Shown here in pieces: positions 13,681-29,731 of a stretch of DNA of 64,000 nucleotides. Each line of letters opens with the position of its first letter. The stretch's first letter is position 1. Origin of the DNA: an uncultured Ruegeria sp. Lineage in GTDB: Bacteria > Pseudomonadota > Alphaproteobacteria > Rhodobacterales > Rhodobacteraceae. A model generated the notes under the pieces. That model was not told where the DNA came from. It did not search any database and saw nothing but the letters and a program-made list of their open reading frames with translations. The position numbers were made by a program, and so were the translations under genes. The stretch lies in the NCBI RefSeq assembly GCF_947500045.1, contig NZ_CANMQQ010000002.1:248001-312000 (forward strand). Direction: 5' to 3'.

Positions 13681-13721
13681 GCGGGCGTGATGGAATGGTA
13701 GACATATCGGACTTAAAATCC
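13681..13721 (+). pseudogene. 5' half of a split tRNA-Leu(UAA) gene
   Basis: Starts with acceptor strand GCGGGCG, D-arm ATGGAATGGTAGACAT and anticodon arm TCGGA-CTTAAAA-TCC, after which tRNA sequence stops abruptly. Its missing partner is at 29676-29731: joined there, the acceptor (GCGGGCG/CGCCCGC) and anticodon stems (TCGGA/TCCGA) are perfect. It is therefore the left remnant of a tRNA gene broken by the element between. Confidence 0.85.
13711..13721 (+). repeat. attL core of the tRNA-Leu element
   Basis: ACTTAAAATCC, covering the anticodon loop and part of the 3' anticodon stem, is repeated identically at 29676-29686. Sequence outside this core differs at both ends except where it belongs to the tRNA. 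Fits a tyrosine-integrase crossover site in the anticodon loop. Confidence 0.8.
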
Positions 13722-13806
13722 TGCGCTTCCGCCCGTAATGCGCATTGTATTCATAGCCTTGTGGTCGTATGGAGATTTCCAGGCCCGAAATAGGCCCGAC
13801 ACGCTC

Positions 13807-13892
13807 GCCCGCGTGGTGGAATGGTAGACACAAGAGACTTAAAATCTCTGGGCCGGAAGGCCGTGCCGGTTCGAGTCCGGCCGCGGGTACCA
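13807..13892 (+). tRNA. tRNA-Leu(UAA), intact, with encoded CCA
   Basis: Acceptor GCCCGCG/CGCGGGT (one G-U), D-arm GTGGAATGGTAGACAC, anticodon arm AGAGA-CTTAAAA-TCTCT with anticodon UAA, long class II variable arm GGGCCGGAAGGCC, T-arm GCCGG-TTCGAGT-CCGGC, then ACCA. It lies 85 bp inside the left end of the element that breaks another tRNA-Leu with the same anticodon, so it likely substitutes for the lost host tRNA. Stems differ from the broken copy, so it is not a duplicate of it. Confidence 0.93.
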
Positions 13893-13912
13893 CAATTTGA
13901 GTAGATATTTTT

Positions 13913-14656
13913 ATGAAGTACGACGATAGAAACATCTCTAACATCGGTGAGTTGCTAGATTGCTTAGCGGACCAAATCCCGGAAAATGAGCAAGTCTGGT
14001 TTCGAGGTCATGCAGATACGGAATGGGGCCTCACATGCACTCTTGCCAGAAATGGTGGAATGCAGAACGAGTTCCCATTGATTAGACGCTTTAAACAAAA
14101 CGCTCTTCCTTTGATCACCAATAGACCTGGTGACGAATGGGAATGGTTGTTCCTAATGCAGCACCACGGTCTCCCCACACGCTTATTGGACTGGTCGGAA
14201 AGCGTCTTAGTCGCATTGTATTTTGCGGTTAACGATGACGGCTCTGATCACGAGGATGAAGATGGTTGTATTTGGGCGTTGCTGCCACATGAGTTGAATG
14301 CAATTTCCTTGCGCGATGACAATGCTAAATCGGTACTTGGTCTCGGTGACGACAAGCATTTTGACGATTACCTGCCGAGCAAGATCGGGGCTCAGGTCCA
14401 GACGTTTCAACCTCTTGCGGCGACTGCCGTAAGGAACAATCCGCGCATCCAGATGCAGCAAGGCGTCTTCACGGTTTCGCACAAGGATTTGTCTGGTCTA
14501 GATGAGCTTCCGGATACGAGCCCGATCTGGAAGTTGATTATTCCTGCAGGGCAGAAGGCGGTGTTTCGGAGCCAGCTTAAAGCTCTAAACCTAAGCAAGC
14601 TGTCTCTTTTCCCGGAACTCAGTAACGCAGCCGAACATGCCAGGAGCTTGGTCTGA
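13913..14656 (+). CDS. FRG domain protein
   Basis: 247 aa. The name-giving F-R-G is at residues 30-32 (VWFRGHADTEWGL), and the second family motif HHGLPTRLLDWSES lies near residue 83, followed by ALYFAV. FRG domains are found in mobile-element and defence-associated proteins; biochemical activity is not established to my knowledge. No signal peptide or membrane segment. Its stop overlaps the start of the DUF262 gene by one base (TGATG), so the two are probably one functional unit. Starts 20 bp after the tRNA. Confidence 0.8.
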   Translation: MKYDDRNISNIGELLDCLADQIPENEQVWFRGHADTEWGLTCTLARNGGMQNEFPLIRRFKQNALPLITNRPGDEWEWLFLMQHHGLPTRLLDWSESVLVALYFAVNDDGSDHEDEDGCIWALLPHELNAISLRDDNAKSVLGLGDDKHFDDYLPSKIGAQVQTFQPLAATAVRNNPRIQMQQGVFTVSHKDLSGLDELPDTSPIWKLIIPAGQKAVFRSQLKALNLSKLSLFPELSNAAEHARSLV

Positions 14657-15711
14657 TGTCCAATTTTGAAATAAGTGCCATGTCCGACTCATCGGTTTTG
14701 GGTTTGGTCGATATGCGTGAGTCCATTCAGATTGACCCTGAATATCAACGGCCTGGCGGGGTGTGGTCTCTAGCCAAGAAACAGCTGTTCATAGACTCGC
14801 TGATCAACCGATACGATATCCCGAAGTTTTACTTTCATCATCTTATCGGCGCTCATGCTGAAGAAGGCATGCGCTATGCGATTATTGATGGTAAGCAGCG
14901 TCTTCAAGCGATTTGGGATTTCTTTGATGGTGAATTCGCACTGTCACGTGACTTTGTGTATTCCGATGATCCGTCCATTGACGCAAAAAACATGAAATAC
15001 AATCAGATCGCAGATAAGTTTCCAAGGTTGATTATGAAGCTGCATGCCAGGACGCTTTCCGTGCAAACTGTTTTGGCTGAAGATCTCGATTTCATTGAAG
15101 ATATGTTTTCTCGCTTGAACGAGGCTGTTCCGCTGGCTGCGGCCGAAAAGCGAAATGCTTTTGGTGGACCGCTGCCTACCATTTTTCGAGAAGTCTCTCA
15201 GCATCCCTTCTTTACAAACAAGATTAAGGTATCGCCCACAAGGTATCGACATCATGACCTGGTCGCGAAACTTATTTATCTTCAGTTTAGGTCGGACTTT
15301 GTTGACACTAAGAAGGCGTCGCTGGACCACTTTGTTAAGAGTGGGCGGGCTGATGATTTTGATCATAACCTACTGGCGAGTTCTGTTGACCAGGTATTGG
15401 CGGCTCTCGCCGAGTTGGAAGCAATGTTTGTCGACAATGACGACCTTGTACGCTCGACCGGTATGATTGTTGTGTACTTCCTGCTTGTCTCCAAGCTTCT
15501 CGAGGAAGGGCGAGCAATCAACTTCGGACGATCCGAGCTGATTGGTTTTGAAGAATTGAGGCGAAGAAATCGCGAGCTCTTTGCGTCTGATGAAAACGAA
15601 AACGAAGACGTCGACTTTAAGTTGATCGAATTCGATGAACTGGCTCAATCCTCAAACGACGGCTCTGCGATTCAACGGCGCTACGAGCTGTTAAGGGAGC
15701 ATCTTACGTAG
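14656..15711 (+). CDS. DUF262 domain protein (ParB/GmrSD-like nuclease fold)
   Basis: 351 aa. N-terminal DUF262: DPEYQRPGGVWSLAKKQLFI (residues ~27-46) with the YQR...W signature, then DSLINRYDIPKFYFH, and the conserved DGKQRLQAIWDFF near residue 76. This ParB/Srx-type fold occurs in the GmrS half of type IV restriction enzymes and other defence proteins. The C-terminal part is helical and lacks an obvious HNH nuclease (GmrD) motif. Translationally coupled to the FRG gene upstream. Confidence 0.8.
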   Translation: MSNFEISAMSDSSVLGLVDMRESIQIDPEYQRPGGVWSLAKKQLFIDSLINRYDIPKFYFHHLIGAHAEEGMRYAIIDGKQRLQAIWDFFDGEFALSRDFVYSDDPSIDAKNMKYNQIADKFPRLIMKLHARTLSVQTVLAEDLDFIEDMFSRLNEAVPLAAAEKRNAFGGPLPTIFREVSQHPFFTNKIKVSPTRYRHHDLVAKLIYLQFRSDFVDTKKASLDHFVKSGRADDFDHNLLASSVDQVLAALAELEAMFVDNDDLVRSTGMIVVYFLLVSKLLEEGRAINFGRSELIGFEELRRRNRELFASDENENEDVDFKLIEFDELAQSSNDGSAIQRRYELLREHLT

Positions 15712-15712
15712 T

Positions 15713-15787
15713 TGTGTACAATATTTATGTACACACTTGACGTCTTTGGCTGCGTCTCCCATCTTGTGTACAAACTTAATGTACACA
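15713..15787 (+). promoter_or_regulatory. Promoter flanked by two identical operators upstream of the restriction gene
   Basis: Two 23-bp inverted repeats, each TGTGTACA-N7-TGTACACA, at 15713-15735 and 15765-15787, start exactly 52 bp apart (about five helical turns). Between them lies a promoter: -35 TTGACG (15737-15742), 17-bp spacer, -10 CATCTT (15760-15765). The downstream operator ends 13 bp before the ATG at 15801. A dimer bound at both sites could loop out and shut the promoter; the HTH domain of the encoded nuclease is the natural candidate. Confidence 0.7.
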
Positions 15788-15800
15788 GGGGGCATTATCA

Positions 15801-16805
15801 ATGGGGAGCACACCGTTAGCATCACTCACTGAGCTTGCAGGTATTGCGAACGTCTCGCGACAGGCGGTCTGGAACTGGTCGAAGCGCAAGGCCGATTTTC
15901 CGGCAGCCGTGAGCGAAGGACCTAACGGCCCCGTCTACAGTGTCGCCGAGTTCACCGCATGGTTGGAACAGGACGGCAAGACCGTCGGCGGAGCGCTTAA
16001 AGGCAGCAACTCCGTCGCCACAGACCTGCTCACAGCAGATCCAAAGAGCACGCGGGCCGTGATCGAAGGGCTGAGTGCGGTCAAGAAGAAAAAACTGCGA
16101 CAGGAACTGATGGATCAAATCCGGGTGCTTCAAGAACTGGAAGCAGAGCTGGACGCGATAAAGCAACCAGAGCATATTTTTGACCCTTCAAACCCAAACT
16201 ACATGGGACGGTTCACAGCGGCGGCCCTATTGATCCAACCGCGGCATCCCTTGGAAGAAGTGGAGAAATTCTACGGCGCTGGGGTCTATGCGCTGTACTA
16301 TAAGGGTGAATTTGCAGCGTACGAGAAGATATCTGGAAAGGAAACTCCGCTCTACACCGGCAAAGCCGATCCAAAATTCGCCCACGCTGAAAATCCCACA
16401 GAACAGGGCGACTCCCTAAGCCGACGTATCAACGAGCACAGGAAGAGCATTGAGCTGGTTTCGGGCCAAGGCGGCATAAGTCTCGAAGATTTTGAAGTCC
16501 GATATCTGGTGACGGCAAGCGGGTTTCAGGTGACCGCTGAGAATTTCCTGATCAGCTACTTCAAGCCGATCTGGAACAAGGAGACCAAAATCTGCTTCGG
16601 CATCGGTAAGCACGGCGACGATGCGAACACCCGAAAGAACAAGAAGTCACCTTGGGATACGCTTCACCCGGGGCGGAAATGGGCGCTGGCAAGTGAGGAG
16701 CTTAAAACGCCGGAAGAAATTGCGGCGGACATATCTGACCACCTGGACGCATTCCCACCTATCGACGCGATCGACTTTAAGTCCCTTTTGCTCGGCGAGG
16801 CTTGA
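15801..16805 (+). CDS. Eco29kI-type GIY-YIG restriction endonuclease with N-terminal HTH
   Basis: 334 aa type II restriction enzyme. Residues 125-290 match the Eco29kI family: GAGVYALYYKG (160-170), PLYTGKA (183-189), then R209, H213, E247 and N259, whose spacing agrees with the R104/H108/E142/N154 active site I recall for Eco29kI. Eco29kI cuts CCGCGG; the same site is likely here but not proven. Residues 8-55 form an extra HTH (LTELAGIANVSRQAVWNWSK) of MerR/AlpA type followed by a coiled-coil linker (90-120). This fusion plus the operators upstream suggests self-repression. The 3' end overlaps the convergent methyltransferase by 29 bp. Confidence 0.88.
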   Translation: MGSTPLASLTELAGIANVSRQAVWNWSKRKADFPAAVSEGPNGPVYSVAEFTAWLEQDGKTVGGALKGSNSVATDLLTADPKSTRAVIEGLSAVKKKKLRQELMDQIRVLQELEAELDAIKQPEHIFDPSNPNYMGRFTAAALLIQPRHPLEEVEKFYGAGVYALYYKGEFAAYEKISGKETPLYTGKADPKFAHAENPTEQGDSLSRRINEHRKSIELVSGQGGISLEDFEVRYLVTASGFQVTAENFLISYFKPIWNKETKICFGIGKHGDDANTRKNKKSPWDTLHPGRKWALASEELKTPEEIAADISDHLDAFPPIDAIDFKSLLLGEA

Positions 16806-17961
16806 TGACGGCGAGCTTGTCGCGAACGCTCTCCGCGACCACTCGGCCGAGTTTTACCGGAACGGCATTGCCAAGCTGGCGCATCGTCTCTGACCAAGAT
16901 CCATGAAAGATCATGTCGTCGGGGAATGTTTGCAAGCGGGCTGACTCCCGAACAGTAAAGTACCTTACGCTTCCATCTGGCCGACGTAGCATGTTCTCGC
17001 CGCCTGGTACGCCGTGGACGCCAGCCTTCAAAGTCTTCGCAGGTTCGTCTAGCGGACTGCCGGTGTGTCCGGGGTATGTTCTGGCACCGGCTTGGAACTT
17101 ATGGTCGCGGATACCCGCACTTTTCCTCGGTTCCTTTTCAGGGTCGGGTAAATCTGAGATCGCTTCTCTGACAGTCTGCCAGGCCGCTTGCGAGGGGCGA
17201 GCCTCCAAGCGCGAAGCGCGTTGCATTTGCTTTTCGTCGACGGGCCGGTCTTTCTTCCGGACCCTCTGAACGTCCCAATACTCACCGGAACGCCATTTGT
17301 CCCAAAGCAGGGCCTCTTGCGAATGTGAGGCCTCGGGGAAATGCCATTCGATAGCGGTGTCCGACCTAAAGCCGACGATGAACACTCGCTCACGTTTTTG
17401 CGGAACACCATAGTTCGCTGAATTGAGCACCCTCAAAGCGACACGATACTCTAACCCACGGTATCGTCCTCTTGTCTCATAGTCTTCCAATCGGGCTAGA
17501 TGGTCCAGCCATGGCTCGTCTTTCTTTTCGACCATCTCAGGATGTCTTAGCTGCAGCCGAATGTACTCAAGGTAGTTAGCAAAAGTAGTGCGCGTGAGAC
17601 CCTTCACGTTTTCGAAGACAAATGCTCTCGGTTTCAAATTTCGGACGGCTCGAATTGCTTGTGGAAACATGTCGCGCGAGTCTAGGTGGGCCTTGTGTCT
17701 TCCGCCCAACGAGAACGGCTGACACGGAGGGCCGCCTGTAACAAGATCCACATCACCTGTGATGTCTTCAAAATTGAATTCGCGAACGTCAACCTCGTGT
17801 AGTGGCCAATCGGAAACTAGGTCAATTCCTAGCTTCTGGTTCTCTCGTATCGTGTCACACGCCCATTTGTCCCAGTCCATTACGGCTGCAGGTTGAAAAC
17901 CTGCTTGGCTAACCCCGAGTCCAAGTCCACCCGCGCCAACAAATAGTTCGACTGATCTCAT
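16777..17961 (-). CDS. DNA (cytosine-5) methyltransferase of the restriction-modification pair
   Basis: 394 aa. C5 methyltransferase motifs: I VELFVGAGGLGLG (3-16), IV GGPPCQPFS with catalytic Cys80, VI FENVKG (116-121), VIII region VPQKRERVFIVG, and a C-terminal IX/X region ending RQLGNAVPVKLG. It methylates the sequence cut by the convergent nuclease and protects the host; recognition of CCGCGG is inferred from the nuclease family. Convergent overlap with the nuclease gene may allow antisense effects between the two transcripts. Confidence 0.92.
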   Translation of the reverse strand: MRSVELFVGAGGLGLGVSQAGFQPAAVMDWDKWACDTIRENQKLGIDLVSDWPLHEVDVREFNFEDITGDVDLVTGGPPCQPFSLGGRHKAHLDSRDMFPQAIRAVRNLKPRAFVFENVKGLTRTTFANYLEYIRLQLRHPEMVEKKDEPWLDHLARLEDYETRGRYRGLEYRVALRVLNSANYGVPQKRERVFIVGFRSDTAIEWHFPEASHSQEALLWDKWRSGEYWDVQRVRKKDRPVDEKQMQRASRLEARPSQAAWQTVREAISDLPDPEKEPRKSAGIRDHKFQAGARTYPGHTGSPLDEPAKTLKAGVHGVPGGENMLRRPDGSVRYFTVRESARLQTFPDDMIFHGSWSETMRQLGNAVPVKLGRVVAESVRDKLAVIKPRRAKGT

Positions 17962-18231
17962 GCCGTACCTTTGCTTGTTTGTTCTTAGGTATTCGGGCTA
18001 GTCAAGGTCGTCCTCACGCCGAATACTCTTTCGTTTTCCAAATCATTCACGTCAATATGTAGGGAATTTCCTTCGACCCGTACATAGAAATTGTGCGATT
18101 CAGTCTATTGGTAAAAATTCCTATCCGGCCCGGAGACACAGGCCTAGCTCGATGGAAATTCCACTCAACATGGGTTTAAGGCCGGTTTCGCCCGCGAGGA
18201 GTTAAGAGGTTATGGTACTCGTTGAATGTCC

Positions 18232-18474
18232 TTAGTCGTCAATATAGGCGTTCAAGTAGAGCCCGGCGTCGACGCCGAGTGCTTCGCACCAGTGCTTAAA
18301 CTCAATGACGTCAAGACGCCGTTCACAACCCTCGACCTTAGCAACGAAGGACTGCGGCTTACCCAAGGCGTCGGCGAGGGCCTGCTGGGTCATGCCGACC
18401 GAAACGCGCTGATCGCGCAGTCGCCTGATGAGCGACCTGTACTCGTCGTCGTAGATGCTCTTGGCCACCCGCAC
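18232..18474 (-). CDS. XRE-family HTH regulator
   Basis: 80 aa, essentially one HTH_3 domain: RLRDQRVSVGMTQQALADAL, KPQSFVAKVEGCERRLDVIE. Transcribed away from the nuclease-fold gene at 18543, with shared promoter and palindromes between, so it probably represses both. Could instead be a controller of the restriction-modification pair 270 bp away. Confidence 0.8.
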   Translation of the reverse strand: MRVAKSIYDDEYRSLIRRLRDQRVSVGMTQQALADALGKPQSFVAKVEGCERRLDVIEFKHWCEALGVDAGLYLNAYIDD

Positions 18475-18481
18475 GTTCCAT

Positions 18482-18539
18482 TTGACTGCCTGTACAGGTC
18501 GCGGTAATCCCGAAACAGAATTATCCCAAAATAGGATAA
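18482..18539. promoter_or_regulatory. Promoter and palindromes between XRE gene and nuclease-fold gene
   Basis: Rightward promoter: -35 TTGACT (18482-18487), 17-bp spacer, -10 TAATCC (18505-18510). The spacer contains the perfect palindrome CCTGTACAGG (18489-18498). A second inverted repeat TTATCC-N7-GGATAA (18521-18539) overlaps the ribosome site of the downstream gene. Both are candidate operators for the XRE regulator. Confidence 0.5.
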
Positions 18540-18542
18540 ATT

Positions 18543-19034
18543 ATGGGACGGAACGGCGGGCTGACCTCGACCCAGAGGGGCAAGATCGCGGAACTGCACG
18601 TGGCGACGGCGCTGATGTCACAATCCTCAGGGCGCCTATCACCGTTCGAGCCGCTCTCGGACGACCACGGCATCGATCTTGTCGTCCTCGACAAGGAGAG
18701 CGGCCGCGCGCTTCCCATTCAGGTTAAGGCATGGCTCCTAGATCCCGAGAAGCCGGTCAGGACCGTCCAATTCGATGTACAGAAAACCACTTTCGGCAAG
18801 GGCAAGCCGGGCGTGCTGATCTGCGTCGTGGTGAAGAAGGAAACGTTGGAGATAGCCATGTCCTGGCTCATACGTATGGCGGAGATACCGTCCATTGCGA
18901 CCGACAAGCCCAATAAGTTTGCCCTGGCTCCGAGCATCGCCGAAGGTTCGAGAGACAAGTACGTACCCTACAGGCACTTGACCATCGCATCTTTGACTGA
19001 GGCGGTAGAAGCCGAACTCCAGAACGACTGCTGA
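18543..19034 (+). CDS. DUF4365-like protein with PD-(D/E)XK nuclease-type fold
   Basis: 163 aa. Pattern GKIAELHVATAL, then DDHGIDLVV and LPIQVKAWL gives the E...ID...QVK arrangement of restriction-endonuclease-like folds, as in DUF4365 proteins. Probably a DNA- or RNA-cleaving defence or toxin-like component, paired with the divergent XRE regulator. Start ATG preceded by AGGATAAATT. No membrane segment. Confidence 0.6.
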   Translation: MGRNGGLTSTQRGKIAELHVATALMSQSSGRLSPFEPLSDDHGIDLVVLDKESGRALPIQVKAWLLDPEKPVRTVQFDVQKTTFGKGKPGVLICVVVKKETLEIAMSWLIRMAEIPSIATDKPNKFALAPSIAEGSRDKYVPYRHLTIASLTEAVEAELQNDC

Positions 19035-19056
19035 TATCATCCCATTGGAGGGAATA

Positions 19057-19085
19057 GCCCCGGCGCACGGTTAAAACGCCGGGGC
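19057..19085. terminator. GC-rich hairpin after the nuclease-fold gene
   Basis: Perfect 9-bp stem GCCCCGGCG/CGCCGGGGC with an 11-base loop, 22 bp after the stop. No U tract follows, so termination strength is uncertain. Confidence 0.5.
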
Positions 19086-19159
19086 CACGTCGTCGCGGGT
19101 CGGTTAAGATGCGGGAGGAGGCCGCAGCAGAGGGTGCCCTGCATCCCGCGATAACGTCT

Positions 19160-20295: not shown

Positions 20296-20865
20296 TCAGG
20301 AAGCGACAACAGGTGTCCTGGCAATACGCTCGCAGATGGCGCGCCGCTGGCTAGACGAGAGGCGATGATCGCTGGCTATGCTTCGAACGGCCTGTTCACG
20401 CTGGGTGTCATCTGCGAACCGAACGGCACAGCATCCAACGGCAGCGCCGTCGTCGGTCCGAGTCGTCGTGGTGGTCAGTAGCGGAGAGGGCGCGCTGTCA
20501 AGCCAGGCGTCGTCGGCCAGTGCCTCGACGACCTGCCAATCCGGTGGCTCGACAAACTCGACGGAGATGACCTGGTAGACCTCGGGGGACGTGAGCACTG
20601 GCGTGTCCGTCACGTGTTCCAGCAGGCGGCGGCGATCAGCTACGGTAAGCGAGCCATCGGCGGCAAGGCGACGGGCCTGACACAGTCGCGCCGCCGCATC
20701 ACGGTAGGGCAACCTGGGTTCGGATCCGTCGATCTCTTCGAACAGGTGCTGAGCGTCCGCAGCAGCCCTGCAGGCAAGACCTTCGTCGGTAAGCAGCACC
20801 GTGCCGTCGTCGAACAGCACCTCGACCGATACCGCAGGTCCCTGTTCTGCGACTCTATTCGTCAT
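20296..20865 (-). CDS. Hypothetical element protein
   Basis: 189 aa from the ATG at 20865, which overlaps the end of the terminase-like gene by 11 bp; an in-frame ATG at 20901 is possible but overlaps more. Acidic helical protein without recognised motifs. Same leftward unit as the neighbours. Confidence 0.5.
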   Translation of the reverse strand: MTNRVAEQGPAVSVEVLFDDGTVLLTDEGLACRAAADAQHLFEEIDGSEPRLPYRDAAARLCQARRLAADGSLTVADRRRLLEHVTDTPVLTSPEVYQVISVEFVEPPDWQVVEALADDAWLDSAPSPLLTTTTTRTDDGAAVGCCAVRFADDTQREQAVRSIASDHRLSSSQRRAICERIARTPVVAS

Positions 20866-21415
20866 CGGTGCCCAGGTCCTCGTATTCGGCGAGTATCGCA
20901 TCCACGTCTATCGGGGCACCCGAGACCAGCTTGGGCGCGGACGGGGCCACGACGTTGTTCTGGATGGCGACTGTCGCTGCCTCGTTCACGCCGCTGATCC
21001 TCAGGCCGATGAGGCGCACCGCAATCCTAGGGTCCACGTTCGAACAGTCGAAGCGCATCACCGGCTCGAAGTCCTCGTCAAGTTCCGCTTCGCCCGTGTC
21101 GGAGTCTATGGCGGGGACCCAACGGCCTGTGCCCATGTGAAGCGCCGTGGCGATCACCCTCTGCGTCAGCGTCTCCTCGAAGGTGTCGATCGCCTCGTCC
21201 CATTTGGCTGCAAATTCGGGGTCACGTCGCCGCCGCTCATATAGGGAGCGCCGCGCCATGCCGGAGACGTTCGCAGCATAGGTGACCTGGCCGAACTCGG
21301 ACAGCGCCGACAGGAACCGCTCGTCCACGTCCGAAGGTATCTCGGACCGCGTCCGGTACCGGCTCGGCGCATCGGCCTTTGCCGCGGGCCTGATCTGTAT
21401 TGCAGCATTACCCAT
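20855..21415 (-). CDS. Terminase-small-subunit-like protein
   Basis: 186 aa. The N-terminal half has a terminase small subunit style HTH: QVTYAANVSGMARRSLYERR then DPEFAAKWDEAIDTFEETL, a pattern common in phage TerS proteins. No large-terminase gene accompanies it on the element. In satellites such as Gram-positive PICIs a private TerS redirects helper packaging to the satellite genome, and the same role is plausible here. It is unrelated in sequence to the prophage's own TerS candidate at 45551. Confidence 0.6.
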   Translation of the reverse strand: MGNAAIQIRPAAKADAPSRYRTRSEIPSDVDERFLSALSEFGQVTYAANVSGMARRSLYERRRRDPEFAAKWDEAIDTFEETLTQRVIATALHMGTGRWVPAIDSDTGEAELDEDFEPVMRFDCSNVDPRIAVRLIGLRISGVNEAATVAIQNNVVAPSAPKLVSGAPIDVDAILAEYEDLGTDDE

Positions 21416-21971: not shown

Positions 21972-24347
21972 TCAGTCTGCGAAGGGATCGCCGCCTAGGA
22001 GCTTGATCCAAGCACGCCGCACCTCAGGCAGCGAGGGGATTTTCCAGGCACGTTGCTGGTTGTGCTTGATACCATTGATCACGCCGAACTGGCGAAGCTC
22101 TACGAGGACCGCGCGGCGGGAAGGCATCTGCGACCGACGAAACTTTTCGGAGCCGCGCTTCCAGAGTTCGATTGCATTCAAGACCGCAGTGGGTGTCGTG
22201 AACTGATCGATGGCCTCCCAGCCATCGACGTCGTCCATGTCGGCGAAGTCTTCTGTCCAGTCGTCCGGTGTCGGCAGCTTGCCTTCCTCACAGGCATCAA
22301 AAAACCACCGCTGCACGAGGCTCAGGCCATGAATCTTCTGTTCGACTAGAGCGGCGTTTTGGGGAATCGATTCTCTCGGGTGCCGATCAATCTTGCGCGC
22401 AAGGAGCTCGGCGAGGAACGCTTCCCGCCCTCCGTTCCTTATCTGCTCGTGGACCTTGCCGTGGAGCCTCTGTGCCTCATTGCGGTTCGGTGCAGCACTG
22501 CCTGTGCCCCAGGTGTTCGGAACTTTGATGACGGCGTAGCGTCTTTCGTCCGCCGTAGCTGGGACACTGTGGTCCGAATTGCCTGAGATGAGAACGTTAG
22601 ACCGGTTATTCATCGCCCTGGCATCAATGCCCTTCTTTTCCATCATCCCCTTGCGGTCAGTCACGATCTTCTTGAGCCTGCTATCCTCTTTGCCGCTAGA
22701 GAAGTGAAAGTCGATCTCGTCGCAGAAGGCCAGGCAACACGTGCCCATGTGGCCGTTGAACTGGCCTGTCAATTGCTCTCTCGATGATAGAGCCAGCCCG
22801 TGCATCCCATAGATCGAGACCATCAGCTCGCCAAGTGTCGTCTTGCCAGTACCTTTCGCCCCATAGAACGCGAGCGCCACGCCGATTAGCTCCTCCGGAT
22901 TTTGGACACCGTAGGCTAGCCAATCGAGTACGTAGTTGTAGGCTTCTGGGTCGCCACCGCAAAGGCTGTCGCGAATGATCCAATGGATCATGTCTGTTGC
23001 CCCTTCTCGCGGTTCACAACCGAAGCCGGTCCAGAGGTTTAGCATACCATCGACATCGCGGTTCGGTGAAAACACGATGCCCTTTGCAGTGTTACGTTGG
23101 CCCCACTTCAGCCACTCGCGAGCAACCGGAGCAGTTGCCAACACGCCTTTGGCGTTGGTAACCTCCATCCGCTTGTTTTCGTGATAGTCAAAGAAGCTTA
23201 CTTTAGTGGCGAAAATCCACCGCGTCGCAGACGTCCCGTCGTAGGGATCTTCCTCCGTTAACTTGTACGCCACGCGAGTCTTTCCCTCAACATCGACTAC
23301 GGTGTATCGTTGGTTCATCCGCTCCAGTGGCCCTGGCGGTGTATCCACCAGAGAGAGGTTCTCTATCTCATCGTCGAAATCATCTTCCGCCGAGACATAT
23401 GGAGCGGTCTTTTTCCATGCCAAAACCAAATGACGTTGCAATTCGGTACCATCAAACTTACCGTCGCGCTCCCCGTTTTCGTCAGGCCACAGAGGGACAT
23501 GGTTTGAAAACAGGTCTAGAGTGGCATTGAAGGAGGCGCCAGAGCGCTTAATGTCACCGACGAGACCGAGGAGATGCGTATAGCGCGACGTCCCATCGGG
23601 TCCGTCAAGCCTGTTACCTAGAGCGGCTATTGTCTCTTTTGTCACCTCGTCGTAGCCGTCTTCTCGATCGAAGTCAGGGTCGATCTCAGAGACTTCGGAA
23701 GTACGCATCTTGCTGAAGTCCGAAAACGCTGCTTCGTTTTCAAAACCGTCGATTATGTCGAGCATCCTGGTTAGGATCCTCATTGCTGCGTCGGTCAATC
23801 GAACGTTTCCACCCGATGATCGCAAATCCCCCCGCACTTCATAGATAGGATCATCAATTCTGAAGGGCCAATTGCCTACGGATTCTGGATCGTCGCAACG
23901 CATCCAGACATGGCCGCGGTCCGTACGACGACTCGACGATGGGGTCACGCATGCGACGACATCACCATTCTGTTCTTCCATTATCTCGGCGGCAATCGCG
24001 GGGCCGTCGCCTTCGTCGCAGTCGAGTACGACGCACCCTAGCGACGCTGGTTGCACACCAATCGCATTCTGCTTTGGGTCCTTGAGAATATGTTCTCGTG
24101 CTTCAGAAACAGTTGGTCGCAAATTGGGCCAGTTAGCCTGAAAGGCCTTCTTGTTGTGAAGCAGCACTAAGGCTGGGTAGTAGCCTTGGCGCATCGCTGC
24201 CGCGACAAGGCACCCCAAGAGATCGACCGTTGATTCAGTCACTTCGCACGTTGAAGAGACTGCGTTTGTGAGGCGCCCTTCGAATACTGGCTCACTTACT
24301 TGGCTTTTCTTGTTAAGCTTCTCAGCATTCATGGGTCTGTAACTCAA
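21972..24347 (-). CDS. Primase-polymerase/superfamily 3-type helicase of the element
   Basis: 791 aa replication protein. N-terminal archaeo-eukaryotic primase (PrimPol) domain: GCVVLDCDEGDGP (103-115) gives the DxD metal motif and RGHVWMRCDD the following His motif. C-terminal VapE/DUF5906-type helicase: Walker A FYGAKGTGKTTLGE near residue 495, Walker B CLAFCDEIDF, then RSNVLISGNSDHSVPATADERR. Would start element replication after excision. A second but different enzyme of this class occurs in the prophage at 41120. An in-frame ATG six codons in (MNAEKL) is an alternative start. Confidence 0.88.
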   Translation of the reverse strand: MSYRPMNAEKLNKKSQVSEPVFEGRLTNAVSSTCEVTESTVDLLGCLVAAAMRQGYYPALVLLHNKKAFQANWPNLRPTVSEAREHILKDPKQNAIGVQPASLGCVVLDCDEGDGPAIAAEIMEEQNGDVVACVTPSSSRRTDRGHVWMRCDDPESVGNWPFRIDDPIYEVRGDLRSSGGNVRLTDAAMRILTRMLDIIDGFENEAAFSDFSKMRTSEVSEIDPDFDREDGYDEVTKETIAALGNRLDGPDGTSRYTHLLGLVGDIKRSGASFNATLDLFSNHVPLWPDENGERDGKFDGTELQRHLVLAWKKTAPYVSAEDDFDDEIENLSLVDTPPGPLERMNQRYTVVDVEGKTRVAYKLTEEDPYDGTSATRWIFATKVSFFDYHENKRMEVTNAKGVLATAPVAREWLKWGQRNTAKGIVFSPNRDVDGMLNLWTGFGCEPREGATDMIHWIIRDSLCGGDPEAYNYVLDWLAYGVQNPEELIGVALAFYGAKGTGKTTLGELMVSIYGMHGLALSSREQLTGQFNGHMGTCCLAFCDEIDFHFSSGKEDSRLKKIVTDRKGMMEKKGIDARAMNNRSNVLISGNSDHSVPATADERRYAVIKVPNTWGTGSAAPNRNEAQRLHGKVHEQIRNGGREAFLAELLARKIDRHPRESIPQNAALVEQKIHGLSLVQRWFFDACEEGKLPTPDDWTEDFADMDDVDGWEAIDQFTTPTAVLNAIELWKRGSEKFRRSQMPSRRAVLVELRQFGVINGIKHNQQRAWKIPSLPEVRRAWIKLLGGDPFAD

Positions 24348-24385
24348 GCATCGACTTTTCCCTTGATGTAGATCTAGGCAAGTGT

Positions 24386-24422
24386 CTGACCCGCATCGTT
24401 CGCGAAAGTCTTTGCGGGTCAG
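24386..24422. repeat. 10-bp perfect inverted repeat upstream of the primase gene
   Basis: CTGACCCGCA (24386-24395) and TGCGGGTCAG (24413-24422) with a 17-base loop that itself contains the palindrome TTCGCGAA. It lies 39 bp upstream of the primase start; candidate replication origin, operator or leader hairpin. Confidence 0.55.
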
Positions 24423-24583
24423 CTATGTCCGAAACGGTTCCGGTTTGAGGAATGATCAACCGTGTCAACCCCCCAGTAAACTATTAGTTGGAGGGCAACT
24501 GGCATGGAATTAATGCTGAGAACTAAGGCTCCGGGCAAACGTTCTCCGGTCGATTTCCGATCGCTTCGATTGCTCACAGGCCG

Positions 24584-24844
24584 TTAATCCAGAGGTTTTT
24601 GGCGGTGTGTATCCATGAAGGAGCGGAGATCGGCGATTGAGTAAAGCACTCGGCGACCGACGCGGTGGACTGCAGGCCCTTTGGCTTCCATCCGCCACCT
24701 GTCCACAGTCTGCCGACTGACCCCGATGAATTCCGCGGCCTCGTCAACGTTGAGGTATTCGCGCCGTGGCGCGATCACGTCGCTGGTCGATATGAGTTCT
24801 TCAATGCGCCCGAGGCGCTCGACTATCTGTTCCATTCTGCTCAC
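24584..24844 (-). CDS. AlpA/excisionase-like MerR-type HTH protein
   Basis: 86 aa. HTH_17 domain: LNVDEAAEFIGVSRQTVDRWR then HRVGRRVLYSIADLRSFMDT. Such proteins act as recombination directionality factors or activators of integrase and excision in satellites and islands. Preceded by a short N-terminal helix (residues 1-25). Positioned upstream of the primase gene on the same strand. Confidence 0.75.
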   Translation of the reverse strand: MSRMEQIVERLGRIEELISTSDVIAPRREYLNVDEAAEFIGVSRQTVDRWRMEAKGPAVHRVGRRVLYSIADLRSFMDTHRQKPLD

Positions 24845-25170
24845 TCCGTACCAGCTGTAAACGGGATCAATATGGAACTTTCGTCATTAGTTGTTGACCA
24901 TCAGTTCGACCCAATAAAGCATATCGAACACCAATAAGTACCAAGTATGAGGGTAGTTGATACAGATTAGTGATCCTAGACATATTGATGCGGAACCCAC
25001 TTCTGTTTCTTGCTCGTGATCAGATTCCAGTGTGGGCGCGATGAGCTTGACATTTGCCTAACACAAGAGAAGGCGGCCGGCCGGCCCAGAACATGCTGAC
25101 CTAAACGGTTGGAGCCAGCGTGTAAACGAAGGTCTGTAGCTTGGAAATCATGACCCCACGAGAAAGCAAT
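24845..25170. other. 326-bp gap without a supportable gene
   Basis: Contains promoter territory for the AlpA-like gene and the 3' region of the 25171 gene. A GC-rich patch GGCGGCCGGCCGGCCC near 25071 is self-complementary. Otherwise I see nothing specific. Confidence 0.3.
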
Positions 25171-25584
25171 CTAACAACTGTCCCGCAGCTCAATGCAACA
25201 CGCCTCGGTAGACTCCTTATCCTCTTCACATGTTTTTTCGATAATGCGGTCCGAACAGTGTATGTAACACCGCCAGGACCTTTCGACGCGCAGGGTTAGC
25301 GTTGAAAATACACTTTTTTTGAATGCGACAAGCACTTCTCTCGCTAATTCTGCATTTTGAGCAAAAATGAGGAGCGCTATTCCCTTTGGCGCGATAGTGA
25401 ACGCAGGAGATGGGCCGCTTTCTAAACCAAGACGCCTGGCGTCAACTTCAAAATCAATCCTTTCAGTTATCTGAACACCGAGCTCAGCTTTTGTGAGTAT
25501 TTCGTTATACTCCTCTGGGATCGCATCGGTTTCACCCATTATAAAGTCATGGATGATCGACTCTTCGAAATCGTTCAACTTCAT
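25171..25584 (-). CDS. Hypothetical AT-rich cargo protein
   Basis: 137 aa, not recognised. No signal peptide; soluble alpha/beta look with four Cys in the last 45 residues (SWRCYIHCSD, CCIELRDSC). Ten bp downstream of the 25594 gene and probably co-transcribed with it. Base composition is clearly more AT-rich than the surrounding chromosome, a sign of transfer. Confidence 0.55.
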   Translation of the reverse strand: MKLNDFEESIIHDFIMGETDAIPEEYNEILTKAELGVQITERIDFEVDARRLGLESGPSPAFTIAPKGIALLIFAQNAELAREVLVAFKKSVFSTLTLRVERSWRCYIHCSDRIIEKTCEEDKESTEACCIELRDSC

Positions 25585-25593
25585 TGTAATTTC

Positions 25594-26220
25594 CTAAATG
25601 GCAGCCAGTTTCTCTGCAAATTTTCCGAGGTTATTGACCTCTACACCCTCATACGGAAATATTGCATCCGCATCAATTTTTGGATCAAGTATTACTGCAA
25701 AAATTCGATCTGAGACAATCTCATCGGGCAAGCAAGGCTTTAAGGCTTTTGCAAGGACTTTGGCGGCTCTAATGTCGTCTGCCATGAAGCCAGGGCCTCG
25801 AGATATATTTGAATCGTGAAACCCATTCGCAATCTCTCTCAGTACGCCTACCAATTGCGCTTTCTTATTTCTTCTCTCGTTTTCTTCCAGCCTCTTCTTC
25901 GCTCGCTGTTCGTAGAAGAAGTAAATAATATGAAGAAAAACACCGGTCGCACAAATGATTAGTCCCGAATTGCGAACCGTCAACCAATCGGTTCCCTCCT
26001 CGCCTTTTGAATCTGAGCTATTAATCACTTGATCAGAGGCGTCGGTCACTGCTTGGATTATTAGTGGCCAGAGATAATCGCCACCAATCAATGAGACTCC
26101 ACCAAGAAATACCACAGTAAAAAACCGCCTCAATGGATTTCCAATGAGTATATATTTAACCAAATCCAGAATTTCGGAAGGCAGATCTTTCCTGCCGCCA
26201 CTTTCTTCATTTTGGGTCAT
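25594..26220 (-). CDS. Two-pass membrane protein of unknown function
   Basis: 208 aa. Transmembrane segments near residues 32-55 (FFTVVFLGGVSLIGGDYLWP) and 88-106 (GLIICATGVFLHIIYFFY), then a charged coiled stretch (EQRAKKRLEENERRNKKAQ) and a ~90 aa cytoplasmic domain. A membrane anchor plus cytosolic domain in a defence-rich element suggests an effector, but no known family is recognised. Confidence 0.6.
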   Translation of the reverse strand: MTQNEESGGRKDLPSEILDLVKYILIGNPLRRFFTVVFLGGVSLIGGDYLWPLIIQAVTDASDQVINSSDSKGEEGTDWLTVRNSGLIICATGVFLHIIYFFYEQRAKKRLEENERRNKKAQLVGVLREIANGFHDSNISRGPGFMADDIRAAKVLAKALKPCLPDEIVSDRIFAVILDPKIDADAIFPYEGVEVNNLGKFAEKLAAI

Positions 26221-26299
26221 TCAAAAGCCTTACTAGGATTTTTTGCTAATTTTGTTAGCTGCGAATTAACTAGATCGAAATTCAACATATTATGTAGAA

Positions 26300-26671
26300 C
26301 TAAATGTATATCACCAACCGATCATAAGCTGATTTTCTGGCCTCCTTTTCGCGATCAGGATTTTCGCTAGTCTTACTCTCACTCTCGCGTCTACTTTGTG
26401 CATCTACCAGTAACTTTTCCAAAGTTTTCGCAAATTTTTCATTCACTTCGTTTGGATGGTTCGCAAAAAGTTTATCATATCCTTGGGAAACCCAAAACTT
26501 TGAGTAGTAAAGTGACTGCGAGCGGCTACTGGGTACCATTATTAGAGACGAACTGCCGGGGTCGCCTGCATTGAGCAACCCTATCAAAAGCCGCACCTTA
26601 TCTTTCGCGGAGAGGTTTTGCATAATTTCTTCAATGAAACTAAATGCAATGGTCAATCTGGGGTCGCTCAT
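26300..26671 (-). CDS. Hypothetical cargo protein
   Basis: 123 aa from the ATG at 26671 (MSDPRLTIAF); an in-frame start at 26713 adds 14 residues. Soluble, helical, with a very charged C-terminus (ESESKTSENPDREKEARKS). No recognised domain. Same AT-rich block. Confidence 0.5.
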   Translation of the reverse strand: MSDPRLTIAFSFIEEIMQNLSAKDKVRLLIGLLNAGDPGSSSLIMVPSSRSQSLYYSKFWVSQGYDKLFANHPNEVNEKFAKTLEKLLVDAQSRRESESKTSENPDREKEARKSAYDRLVIYI

Positions 26672-26850
26672 GACAACCTCGCAAACATTAAGCAGTCTAG
26701 GAACACGTAGCACAAATCCAGCGGTCGGGGTATACTTTCGTTGCGATCAAAGCATCTTGTACGCGAACTACCACTACTTCGAAGCCGCTCATTAGCGTGG
26801 GTGCTTTTTTGAAATAGCCTAAGTGTTGGGCAAATCATGTGCCGTGAGGC

Positions 26851-28308
26851 TCAACGTTTTCGTTTTTTGGAGCCACTGAACATTTTTAAGACCTCAGAGA
26901 TCATGCCTGAAAAAAGGCTGCGTAGCTTCAGAAGGCCACCGGAAAATGAACACCGGATTTTTGGTAAATCAAACGCAGCACGCGCTAGAAGGATCGTGGC
27001 CGCAAGCGAGGAAAACAGTGTCAGTGCCCAAAGTAAGAGTGTCACATTAAAGAAAACTAACGGTAGGTTATGAAAAAGTATTGATCGCCCTGCTTCGACT
27101 CTGGGAGTTGTTTCCAAAGTCATACCGTCTAAAGGGTTGACGAAGACATTAGAATTCAAGGGTAGCCGAAAAATATCTTGAAAAATCAATCCGACCAAAA
27201 CGGTTGCGAATAGAGGAGAGAATATCATTGCAACTTTGAGGGTCATGTGTGGGATGTTCCAAATTGCAACTGGACCCAGTAGCAGACCCTTAGAGGCAAC
27301 ATACGCAGGTTCCGAAAATTTGACTTGATACGCGCGCACTGTAATGCTGTTAACGAGGTATAGCACCACCAAAATGGCTATGAATGGAATAGCTAGTGTT
27401 CGAACATCCTGTTCCAGAAACTTGGAACTACTTCTGGAATTAAAGTATGTGAGTTTTGCTTGTTCTCGATCCCAAGCGTCAGCGAATTCTTGTTGTGAAA
27501 GAGGTTCGGCGTTATTATGGGCATCGATAACTTCTTTACCTACTCTTGCTTTGAATACTGGCGTAAGAAGTGAAACAATATCAATCTTGAATTCGTCATG
27601 CATCCGTTCATCTGAATAGTAGGCTAAGTTTGAGTCTGCGGGAGTTAATTCGAAAGAGTCATTTCGACAGTATTCGGTTAGATCACAGTAATTGAATGGT
27701 TTACCGAATAAATCAGGAAAAGACGGGACGAAGTTATCCAGTTCAGTGAACCAAATTTTGTTAAAATACACCTCTTTGACCGTAAGCCTATCAGTATTGT
27801 TTTCTGGCGCATAAACCAATGTAGAGGGAAAAACGCGATAAACTGGATTGCCCAAGCAGTCTGAATTGGGCTCGACTATCCACTCGATTTTATCGTGCAT
27901 TCTACTTTCAATTCCAGTACGCGGATGCATCAGTAGATTGCAAATGTTTCCAGTTGGAAAATCGGCTACACTTATAATGAAGAAATATCCATGTTGGGGA
28001 GCAAGATCGGATATGTCGCGATCAAAGTACTCATCAAATAGCTCTAATTTCATTGTACTGCCAAAGTACCACTCTCTGAAATCAGCTTCAGTCGCCACGT
28101 CTTCTTCTTTTAAACGATTAAATGCGCGAATGATGCTCATAGTATTAAATGACGCTTGTATAGCGACCCGCTCTTTGAATGCGTCTTTGACTTCCAAATA
28201 AACTGTAAAAATCGCAAGGCATGCAATCCATAGGATTACAATATCTCGGCCTATTGTTCGAATAAGCTCTCTAAGATCGGATGATGGCTCGGTGCTCGGC
28301 ACTGACAA
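26851..28308 (-). CDS. Large membrane protein of unknown function
   Basis: 485 aa with about four transmembrane segments: near residues 24-42, 306-326, 360-385 and 418-445. Between TM1 and TM2 lies a ~260-residue hydrophilic domain, presumably periplasmic, with paired Cys (CNLLMHP, CLGNP, CDLTEYC) that could form disulfides. The C-terminus is strongly basic (SGSKKRKR), fitting a cytosolic tail. AT-rich, unlike its surroundings. I recognise no family; it is the largest unexplained gene of the element and a candidate sensor or effector of a defence function. Confidence 0.6.
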   Translation of the reverse strand: MSVPSTEPSSDLRELIRTIGRDIVILWIACLAIFTVYLEVKDAFKERVAIQASFNTMSIIRAFNRLKEEDVATEADFREWYFGSTMKLELFDEYFDRDISDLAPQHGYFFIISVADFPTGNICNLLMHPRTGIESRMHDKIEWIVEPNSDCLGNPVYRVFPSTLVYAPENNTDRLTVKEVYFNKIWFTELDNFVPSFPDLFGKPFNYCDLTEYCRNDSFELTPADSNLAYYSDERMHDEFKIDIVSLLTPVFKARVGKEVIDAHNNAEPLSQQEFADAWDREQAKLTYFNSRSSSKFLEQDVRTLAIPFIAILVVLYLVNSITVRAYQVKFSEPAYVASKGLLLGPVAIWNIPHMTLKVAMIFSPLFATVLVGLIFQDIFRLPLNSNVFVNPLDGMTLETTPRVEAGRSILFHNLPLVFFNVTLLLWALTLFSSLAATILLARAAFDLPKIRCSFSGGLLKLRSLFSGMISEVLKMFSGSKKRKR

Positions 28309-28358
28309 TTCCTTTTGAATGCGTCTAGCTTAAGACAGAGAGCGGAGTGGTCAACCGT

Positions 28359-29522
28359 TCAAAGCTCCGAGTTTAGAGGAGGATTTTGATTGGTTCCTCG
28401 ATAAGTTAGAAAACGCGCGCAGATTCGCTCCTGACACTCGCGCAAATGACTACTCAAATGGGCTCGTGTCACGTAGTTGAAGGAGATATGGGTGTTGGCA
28501 TGGTCCATCAGCATCGTTACTGACTGAAAGTCCACGCCAGCCTCCAGCGCATGTGTTCGATAAGTATGGCGCATCTGGTGCGGCGCATAGGGAAATGACT
28601 TTAACCGAACCATCTGCTCGATGTGACCCGACTTAGAGGTTGCTGAGGGAAAAATGAATTGGCTCTCAAGCGGCTTCGTCAGTTCGCGCACCTCACCGAG
28701 CTCTTGGATCATGAATCTCGGCAAGGGTAGGTGAAATCTACGTCCTGACTTGGCTCGGGGAATGAACAACACCCCTTCGTCCTCTAGGTGTTCCCACCTC
28801 ACCGAGCGTGCGTTCGTAGAGCGAAGACCCGTGGTCAACATCAGTAGCCAGCAGGCGCGACGAACACGGTCTTCCATCGCATCCAATCCGCGCCAGAGCT
28901 GAGGCAACTCATCAGGGCCAACTGCCCAGTCACGCGCTTGCTCCTTGTTCATTCGCACGCCGCGCGTGACTGGGTTCGGTGGAAGATCATGGGTCCGGGC
29001 GACGTCGTTCAACAGCAGCTTGAGCACTCGCATGGCACCGTTCGCGCAGTAGGGGCCGGAATTCTTGGTCAACCGCTCGTGAAGAGACCTAACGGCTTCA
29101 CGGTCGATTCGATCTGCTGGCAGCTTGCGGAGACCGCCGAGTGGACCGTCGACCTTCTGACGGTACCATGCGGCCGTTCGTTCACTCAGGTCGGGCCGTC
29201 CTTCTAAGTACCGCTCAAGGGCCTCCTGAATGGTCGGCACAGCCACCTTCTTGGTCCTCGGGTCAGTGCCGCGTCGCAGCGCCAGCCGTAGCTCAGCAGA
29301 GCGCTCTCTGGCGCTGCGCAGCGATAACTCGTCCGTCCTGCCAATCATAACGGACACGTAGCGGTCGGTACCGTCGTTGATGCGCCCGACGTGCTTGTAG
29401 GAGATGCCGTGCTTGCCCACGACTAGGCGCAGACCCTTCGCCTCGCTGTCATAGATCTGTGTGCCGGCTGGATGTTCTTCCGATAGCCGCGACACTGTCG
29501 TCTGCGTGAGTTTCGTGGTCAT
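28359..29522 (-). CDS. int: Tyrosine recombinase (integrase) of the element
   Basis: 387 aa phage-type integrase. N-terminal DUF4102-like arm-binding domain (residues 1-90), core-binding domain (95-185), catalytic domain with R234 (GLRSTNARS), K258-259 region, H315-x-x-R318 (HQMRHTYRTHAL), H341 (MDHANTH) and the nucleophile Y350. All catalytic residues are present. It sits at the right end of the element with its start 154 bp from the attR core, the usual placement. Target is the anticodon loop of tRNA-Leu(UAA). Confidence 0.93.
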   Translation of the reverse strand: MTTKLTQTTVSRLSEEHPAGTQIYDSEAKGLRLVVGKHGISYKHVGRINDGTDRYVSVMIGRTDELSLRSARERSAELRLALRRGTDPRTKKVAVPTIQEALERYLEGRPDLSERTAAWYRQKVDGPLGGLRKLPADRIDREAVRSLHERLTKNSGPYCANGAMRVLKLLLNDVARTHDLPPNPVTRGVRMNKEQARDWAVGPDELPQLWRGLDAMEDRVRRACWLLMLTTGLRSTNARSVRWEHLEDEGVLFIPRAKSGRRFHLPLPRFMIQELGEVRELTKPLESQFIFPSATSKSGHIEQMVRLKSFPYAPHQMRHTYRTHALEAGVDFQSVTMLMDHANTHISFNYVTRAHLSSHLRECQERICARFLTYRGTNQNPPLNSEL

Positions 29523-29675
29523 CTTTGATCGCCTCCGTAGGCCATGTTTCAGGCCATGTTTCGGTTAGGTCCCGAGAGGTCTCAGGACGTGCTACGAGAC
29601 GATGATGTCTTGTTTTCTTGGCTTCGCGGACCCTCAATAGGTGCTATTGGGCCATAAAATATCTCGGACTCAGTA

Positions 29676-29686
29676 ACTTAAAATCC
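29676..29686 (+). repeat. attR core of the tRNA-Leu element
   Basis: ACTTAAAATCC, identical to 13711-13721. Marks the right crossover region. Confidence 0.8.
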
Positions 29687-29731
29687 GAAGGCCTTAGTGC
29701 CGTGTGGGTTCGAGTCCCACCGCCCGCACCA
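29676..29731 (+). pseudogene. 3' half of the split tRNA-Leu(UAA) gene
   Basis: From ACTTAAAATCCGA through variable arm AGGCCTTAGTGCC, T-arm GTGGG-TTCGAGT-CCCAC and acceptor strand CGCCCGC to ACCA. It lacks a 5' half; that half is at 13681. The upstream sequence (CTCGGACTCAGTA) belongs to the element. Could be the native 3' half or one supplied by the adjoining prophage. Confidence 0.85.

What the first reader, a model, noticed from the sequence alone, without database searches (positions are those of the whole stretch)
13681..29731. Element splits tRNA-Leu(UAA) in the anticodon loop and carries a replacement tRNA
Seen directly: the two tRNA halves at 13681-13721 and 29676-29731 rebuild perfect acceptor (GCGGGCG/CGCCCGC) and anticodon (TCGGA/TCCGA) stems and share the core ACTTAAAATCC. 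The usual outcome of tRNA integration is a restored tRNA at one junction, but neither junction here restores it. Instead the element carries a complete tRNA-Leu(UAA) with different stems 85 bp inside its left end. The inference is a substitute or 'guardian' tRNA that lets the element destroy an essential gene and makes its own loss costly unless excision is precise.
Basis: partly seen in the sequence, partly recalled or inferred. Interest (0 to 1): 0.85.

Follow-up and report, generated by a model that had tools for sequence, protein, structure and literature searches.

The report
Mobile element swapping an essential tRNA
A 16-kb mobile element in a marine bacterium has cut the cell's only leucine-tRNA(UAA) gene in two and supplies a foreign copy in its place; related genomes suggest that such borrowed tRNA genes often stay behind after the element is gone.

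Summary
A 15,965-bp element splits tRNA-Leu(UAA) at an 11-bp anticodon-loop core. Joining the flanks gives a perfect 86-nt tRNA, identical to the uninterrupted gene of 6 of 52 typed same-genus (Ruegeria) genomes. The only intact Leu(UAA) gene found in the genome is the element's own, 85 bp inside its left end. The mechanism is known from phages as "tRNA-dependent lysogeny" (mBio 2024). Here the carrier is a defence-loaded, satellite-like island; no capsid or tail family was hit in 17 ORFs. The plan recurs in Litoreibacter, a Mesorhizobium, a Rhizobiales genome and other genera; two related integrases (about 79% identity) sit beside a rebuilt tRNA instead.

What looks new is the aftermath. In 28 of 52 typed genomes the Leu(UAA) gene sits behind an element-type left end, while 3 of 54 keep a full close integrase. 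Double left ends show one replacement tRNA split by a later element. In G053 precise excision would leave no Leu(UAA) tRNA. On a neighbour-gene tree of 31 genomes the allele class needs 9 changes. For the commonest allele an element origin is likely, not proven. New variant of a known kind.

The parts
13681..13721 (+). 5' half of the host tRNA-Leu(UAA), ending in the attL core ACTTAAAATCC (13711-13721)
13722..13806 (+). left-end segment (85 bp) between core and replacement tRNA, conserved among related elements
   Evidence: alignment and HMM
13781..13797 (+). direct repeat AGGCCCGAAATAGGCCC, 70 bp from the core; probable integrase arm-type site (inference)
13807..13892 (+). intact replacement tRNA-Leu(UAA), the only one found in the genome
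13913..14656 (+). FRG-domain protein (PADLOC candidate PDC-S15)
14656..15711 (+). GmrSD_N (DUF262-type) protein, defence-like
15801..16805 (+). Eco29kI-type restriction endonuclease
16777..17961 (-). C5-cytosine DNA methyltransferase
18232..18474 (-). HTH regulator, R-M control-protein-like
20855..21415 (-). terminase-small-subunit-like protein
   Evidence: phrog_4044, E 1.6e-10
21972..24347 (-). primase-like replication protein (DUF5906; phrog_1156)
24584..24844 (-). HTH_17 protein, excisionase-like (phrog_66); 'AlpA-like' is my recalled label
28359..29522 (-). tyrosine integrase with arm-binding domain
   Evidence: PF00589, PF13356
29523..29675 (+). right end between integrase and attR core
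29676..29731 (+). attR core (29676-29686) and 3' half of the host tRNA-Leu(UAA)

Best explanation
A tyrosine integrase recombines a short attP core with the anticodon loop of the host's only tRNA-Leu(UAA) gene. Because the shared core is only 11 bp, the host gene is cut and neither junction restores it. The element carries a complete tRNA-Leu(UAA) just behind its left arm-type site, which takes over decoding of UUA. Shown: split gene, single intact copy inside the element, uninterrupted gene in relatives, same plan in other genera. Inferred: that the integrase acts at this core, that the tRNA is expressed, and that losing it kills the cell. Using only the shared anticodon-loop core frees the element from having to match each host's tRNA stems. 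After integration the cell depends on the element's tRNA, so deletions that keep the left end survive. The element decays, its tRNA stays, and that tRNA is the target of the next element. Over time this has replaced the tRNA-Leu(UAA) gene repeatedly within the genus.
For: Joined flanks give a perfect tRNA; sole intact copy found. Same core, left end and intact tRNA in G446 and G450 (Litoreibacter), G318, G449 (Mesorhizobium), G451 (Rhizobiales), G050, G053, and, with only the left junction seen, in G394, G203, G116, G241, G127. Of 10 named loci with a related integrase, 9 have a Leu(UAA) 3' half just upstream of it; in the tenth (G023) it is decayed. Host-cargo chimaeras would pair poorly: 5 of 7 acceptor and 3 or 2 of 5 anticodon pairs. 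Double left ends in G050, G021 and G116. Element lost but tRNA kept: G023 has a 37-aa integrase remnant and a decayed 3' half, G022 an 89-aa remnant and a decayed attR. Left-end signal of at least 10 bits in 28 of 52 typed genomes, 0 of 1040 shuffles. attL-core remnant at the predicted spacing in 21 loci: mean 5.05 of 11 matches, background 2.41, SD 0.30, maximum 3.10; in 11 hand-picked representatives, best of three offsets, 6.36 against 3.36, SD 0.35, maximum 4.18. Nine parsimony changes of allele class on the neighbour-gene tree; the window's class needs 4. The identical 86-nt tRNA occurs in 7 genomes of 2 genera.
Against: No expression or excision data. The promoter scan found nothing at the left end, nor upstream of the native gene, so it says little and what drives the tRNA is unknown. 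In the commonest allele class (CATATCAG) an older 5' half is not clearly detectable: of 20 loci tested only G012 (p 0.02) and G034 (p 0.047) are nominally above shuffles, without correction for 20 tests; G023 (0.68) and G042 (0.06) also fail. Shared promoter ancestry remains possible there. G032 carries the cargo-type tRNA with no left end; G042 scores 6.8 bits; 3 of 20 CATATCAG loci score 0. TTA is rare in host genes, 1 of 1707 codons in five genes, so essentiality is inferred. G008's Leu(UAA) gene was not found. The neighbour gene is linked to the locus and was found in 31 of 54 genomes.
Confidence: 0.9

Rival explanations
1. The left-end-like sequence upstream of the commonest tRNA alleles is simply the native tRNA promoter and leader, which the element once captured with its tRNA; those genomes were never invaded.
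For: No clear 5' half remains in those loci: 18 of 20 are not above shuffles. By eye, part of the conserved block resembles sequence upstream of native genes.
Against: None of 10 GCGGATG-type and 1 of 9 CATATCGG-type loci score at least 10 bits. A remnant of the anticodon-loop core sits at the predicted 32-bp spacing, which a promoter would not need. In G050 and G116 a CATATCAG-type tRNA stands behind a left end that itself follows an older, decayed 5' half.
Confidence: 0.2
2. The tRNA is carried mainly to help translate the element's own UUA-rich genes; splitting the host gene is incidental.
For: TTA is 26 of 4121 codons in 14 element ORFs against 1 of 1707 in 5 host genes. tRNA-Leu-like matches occur in 122 phage records (the rows shown are annotated tRNA-Leu where annotated).
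Against: In the 10 left ends aligned the tRNA is the isotype of the split gene and lies directly behind the left end. Two restoring relatives show no separate cargo tRNA in the stretches read.
Confidence: 0.06
3. Ordinary restoring island beside an unrelated native tandem tRNA-Leu(UAA).
For: Island databases describe tRNA restoration as usual (PMC4383910, abstract start); Erythrobacter and Cognatishimia relatives do it.
Against: The 13807 tRNA lies between attL and attR; the six genomes with the identical uninterrupted gene show a single Leu(UAA) match; the left end with its tRNA recurs in other genera.
Confidence: 0.03

Closest known systems
tRNA-dependent lysogeny of actinobacteriophages (Guerrero-Bustamante and Hatfull, mBio 2024, PMC10865867; abstract and sections 10 and 11 read)
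   Same: Tyrosine integrase; core of 8-17 bp in the phages listed; host tRNA not rebuilt; element encodes the same isotype; close relatives may rebuild it.
   Different: Those are temperate phages of Actinobacteria with Lys, Ile2 or Leu-CAA targets. Here: a satellite-like island in Alphaproteobacteria, target Leu(UAA), with replacement tRNAs that outlast the element and stack. The sections read do not discuss persistence after loss.
vTRX32-1-like Rhizobium phages (PMC8631192; passages read)
   Same: Integrate by a 12-bp motif inside a tRNA-Leu; phage carries a whole tRNA-Leu, suggested as replacement.
   Different: 42-45 kb phages; the passages say the phage tRNA lacks the motif. Here the window's cargo keeps 10 of the 11 core bases, and in G053 attR carries a cargo-type 3' half.
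Phage-related sequences in Sinorhizobium meliloti (PMC11476347; passages read)
   Same: Authors state that the inactivated tRNA is replaced by an isoacceptor from the inserted sequence, similar to unrelated Alphaproteobacteria.
   Different: Resident insertions; no record of the tRNA after element loss in the passages read.
PICI and similar phage satellites (features recalled; one abstract start seen in a listing)
   Same: About 15 kb, integrase, excisionase-like HTH, primase, terminase-small-subunit-like gene, defence cargo.
   Different: No helper dependence shown; tRNA replacement is not a feature I recall for PICIs.
tRNA-restoring genomic islands (Islander database, PMC4383910; start of abstract seen)
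   Same: Tyrosine integrase, tRNA target.
   Different: Those rebuild the tRNA from island sequence; this one does not.

Membership tests
tRNA-dependent lysogeny / tRNA-dependent integration | tyrosine integrase | tested here: met
   PF00589 E 1.9e-14, PF13356
tRNA-dependent lysogeny / tRNA-dependent integration | attB inside a tRNA gene, short core, tRNA not rebuilt at attL or attR | tested here: met
   11-bp core; ARAGORN finds no tRNA at either junction
[quoted passage not shown]
tRNA-dependent lysogeny / tRNA-dependent integration | disrupted tRNA is otherwise missing | tested here: met
tRNA-dependent lysogeny / tRNA-dependent integration | element tRNA required for survival of integrants | not testable with these tools
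   needs deletion in culture
tRNA-dependent lysogeny / tRNA-dependent integration | carrier is a temperate phage | tested here: not met
   No capsid or tail family at E 0.001 among the 17 element ORFs scanned against PHROGs; one terminase-small-subunit-like match
PICI-like phage satellite | about 15 kb, integrase, AlpA-like protein, primase, no virion genes (criteria recalled) | tested here: met
PICI-like phage satellite | induction and packaging by a helper phage | not testable with these tools
   a prophage with terminase, portal and head genes lies next door; no functional data
tRNA-restoring genomic island | element-borne 3' end rebuilds the tRNA | tested here: not met
   seen in relatives G447 and G448

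The most novel reading that the evidence does not exclude
A mobile-element family has acted as a one-way replacement engine for an essential tRNA gene. In over half of the sampled Ruegeria-group species, including most with the commonest allele, the only tRNA-Leu(UAA) is a former element gene. Each replacement becomes the next target, so the gene has turned over many times at one locus, and in some lineages (G053) precise excision can no longer restore a working tRNA.
Probability: 0.72. Interest if true: 0.78.

Novelty: new variant of a known kind. Interest (0 to 1): 0.68.

Why it matters
tRNA genes are usually treated as conserved host genes and mere landing sites. Here the landing site itself is replaced by the invader, and often for good. 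That gives a natural record for two questions that the 2024 paper leaves open: how common tRNA-dependent integration is outside Actinobacteria phages, and how it relates to tRNA-restoring integration (the two restoring members sit among substituting ones on the integrase tree). It also gives a simple reason why a broken element cannot be lost cleanly, and it warns that tRNA phylogenies, and island finders that look for a rebuilt tRNA, can miss such elements.

Tried and rejected
Viral contigs: no relative of the integrase. Phage and plasmid records: weak integrase matches only, all under 60% identity, the best plasmid match 59.8% over 55% of the query. The left end plus tRNA matched 122 phage and 118 plasmid records, none over 80% of the query; in the rows shown only the tRNA part matched. 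Class-wide integrase search at E 1e-85: own genome only, 1 of 385. Family-wide at E 1e-70: 6 of 394 including own; G413, G434 and G384 show no tRNA-Leu(UAA) half near the integrase and were left aside; G110 is a tRNA-Asn restoring case. Arm-site pattern in the family: 69 matches in 61 of 394 genomes, most of them chance (the backward control hits too). All 69 were accounted for: 30 loci, 36 stretches, a second match inside L168, and the known G318 and G000 sites. Seven genomes have a Leu(UAA) tRNA just behind the site: G394, G203, G116, G241, G127, G318, G000. Looking for older 5' halves at CATATCAG loci failed in 18 of 20. Promoter and terminator scan: nothing. Group I intron of G037: below Rfam's cut-off. 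The idea that a restoring attP arises by aberrant excision at the cargo tRNA was dropped, since the arm site would be lost.
Full report
OBSERVATION. The core ACTTAAAATCC is identical at 13711-13721 and 29676-29686; the flanking halves join into a perfect tRNA-Leu(UAA), and neither junction by itself is read as a tRNA. Six of 52 typed same-genus genomes hold exactly that 86-nt gene, and in G031 and G044 it stands between the same host genes as here. The element is 15,965 bp (29676 minus 13711). The only intact Leu(UAA) gene found in the genome is 13807-13892, inside the element. The genus is read as Ruegeria from named contigs: G023, G050 and G053 share contig lengths with R. lacuscaerulensis HKCCA6521, Ruegeria sp. 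EL01 and an uncultured Ruegeria.

WHAT THE ELEMENT IS. Integrase, excisionase-like HTH protein, DUF5906 primase, a terminase-small-subunit-like protein and a defence block (FRG, GmrSD_N, Eco29kI nuclease, C5 methyltransferase) next to the tRNA. No capsid or tail family was hit among the 17 element ORFs scanned against PHROGs. In the relatives I scanned 10 of 15 (G446), 10 of 11 (G450) and 10 of 22 (G318) ORFs against Pfam: all three have a DUF5906/D5 protein, both Litoreibacter elements a methyltransferase. I read it as a satellite-like island; helper dependence is untested.

SAME PLAN ELSEWHERE. Both ends in one contig: G000, G446 (14,790 bp), G450 (13,055 bp), G318 (14,759 bp) and G053 (about 15.6 kb, my arithmetic from coordinates). 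Ends on separate contigs: G050, G449, G451. Left junction only: G394, G203, G116, G241, G127, all of other genera of the family. Joined halves make a tRNA-Leu(UAA) in 8 of 9 cases tested; G053 fails because its 5' half is decayed and its 3' half belongs to the cargo type. The arm-type repeat starts 70 bp from the core in the six substituting elements measured (after subtracting the bases of each search string that precede the core), and 117 and 157 bp in Erythrobacter and Cognatishimia. From core to cargo tRNA it is 85-88 bp in eight of the ten left ends aligned, but 132-133 bp in the two Rhizobiales (G449, G451). Of 24 genomes checked with one exact pattern, the element carriers show the split and the replacement gene and no third match; G053 shows one. 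Variant genes would escape that pattern.

TWO MODES. In Erythrobacter NAP1 and Cognatishimia maritima the same integrase family (about 79% identity) has one complete tRNA at the left junction, followed by the arm-type repeat, and a 3' half at the right junction; in Cognatishimia the two junctions lie on different contigs. On the integrase tree these two sit among substituting members; support is moderate (94/94 for the Cognatishimia-Litoreibacter pair), and five of the 18 rows are partial because the best open piece was used. A cousin at about 54% identity restores tRNA-Asn. Switching between modes is also reported for actinobacteriophages (PMC10865867, section 10).

AFTERMATH IN THE GENUS. 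Of 54 genomes, 42 matched a strict Leu(UAA) pattern. Of the other 12, ten have a GCGGATG type, G037 a split gene, and G008's was not found; hence 52 typed. Close full-length integrase (86% identity or more): 3 of 54; fragments in G022 (89 aa) and G023 (37 aa). The call's own tally is 29 of 54 at E 1e-10; the rest are other integrases of 24-34% identity. A left-end HMM trained on 8 sequences (5 from this genus) gives at least 10 bits upstream of the Leu(UAA) gene in 28 of 52 typed genomes, 23 of them not used in training; the best of 1040 shuffles is 6.7 bits. By class: GCCCGCG/ACAAGAG 6 of 8, ACAGGAG 2 of 2, ACAAGCG 2 of 2, CATATCAG 16 of 20, CATACCAG 1 of 1, CATATCGG 1 of 9, GCGGATG 0 of 10. 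At 21 such loci (19 CATATCAG, without G048, plus G018 and G029) a remnant of the attL core sits at the expected spacing on average, also in 11 representatives; single loci range from 2 to 9 of 11 matches. Related genomes are not independent, so this is support, not proof; the older 5' half is not recognisable in 18 of 20.

SERIAL EVENTS. G050 and G021 carry two left ends in a row, as does G116 in another genus: the first replacement tRNA was split by a second element. G013 has a decayed GCGGATG-type 5' half before the left end (p 0.003); G030, G028 (p 0.003) and G010 (p 0.013) keep traces of one. G023 and G022 keep integrase stubs and decayed 3' halves. The adjacent LuxR-type gene was found in the fetched stretch of 31 of 54 genomes; on its tree the allele class needs 9 changes, and the window's class needs 4 for its 4 genomes (G042 is a long branch). 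This gene is linked to the locus, so a housekeeping tree is still needed. The identical 86-nt tRNA is in G000, G023, G030, G042, G050, G053 and G394. As a contrast, the matching stretch of tRNA-Leu(CAA) is the same in 12 of 12 genomes and in G000; other genomes were not checked for it, save that G446 and G447 show the same stretch and G450 a different one.

MECHANISM. Shown: split, sole copy found, conserved architecture, retained tRNAs. Inferred: integrase action at the core, expression of the cargo tRNA, dependence of the host. Host-cargo chimaeras would lose stem pairs, which explains why a whole tRNA travels: only the anticodon-loop core must match the new host. TTA is rare in five host genes and about ten times commoner in the element's, which may make this tRNA a tolerable target and its supply useful to the element.

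KNOWN OR NEW. The principle is published (PMC10865867, PMC8631192, PMC11476347; parts read). Searches showed me, in listings and abstract starts, no paper on element-borne tRNAs persisting after element loss, on serial stacking, or on satellites doing this. The library holds open-licence papers only; besides these three I read passages of one more paper (PMC12429752), which says its prophages rebuild their tRNAs.

On recount I corrected the number of CATATCAG loci (20, not 18) and the Cognatishimia spacing (157, not 156), and examined the 36 arm-site matches I had not looked at, which added G241 and G127.

Noticed in passing
window 29732 to beyond 64000 (contig C2 to about 320,508): A tailed-phage prophage (terminase, portal, head, tail genes) follows the tRNA 3' half; about 20 bp of the tRNA 3' end recur just before the host gene at its far end, so two elements share one tRNA gene. 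It could be a helper for the island.
   Followed up: partly
L111/L180 (G037:C60 about 184,650-185,250): A native-type 5' half is cut at ACTTAAAA and followed about 180 bp later by a tRNA-Leu(UAA) with a probable group I intron in its anticodon loop (RF00028 E 2.6e-11, 49.8 bits, just under the cut-off of 50). The left end differs, so this may be another element using the same trick with an intron that hides the target site.
   Followed up: partly
L137 (G110): A 3.4-kb tRNA-Asn(GUU) anticodon-loop insertion by a cousin integrase (about 54% identity) that does rebuild its tRNA.
   Followed up: partly
L194 (G203:C51): An intact tRNA-Asn(GUU) followed by the same arm-type repeat AGGCCCGATATAGGCCC, so a second, restoring element may sit in a genome that also has the tRNA-Leu left junction.
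   Followed up: no
L178, L177, L179 (G031, G007, G046): Weak group I intron matches elsewhere in three further genomes.
   Followed up: no
L126:14888-16051 (G446): The Litoreibacter integrase is read as two ORFs, so this copy may be inactive.
   Followed up: no
L056 (G032): Cargo-type tRNA with the usual downstream host gene but no left-end remnant: complete erosion or replacement by homologous recombination.
   Followed up: partly
upstream of Leu(UAA) in CATATCAG genomes: A short GC hairpin about 15 nt before the tRNA seems kept with paired changes (seen by eye); a possible leader structure.
   Followed up: no
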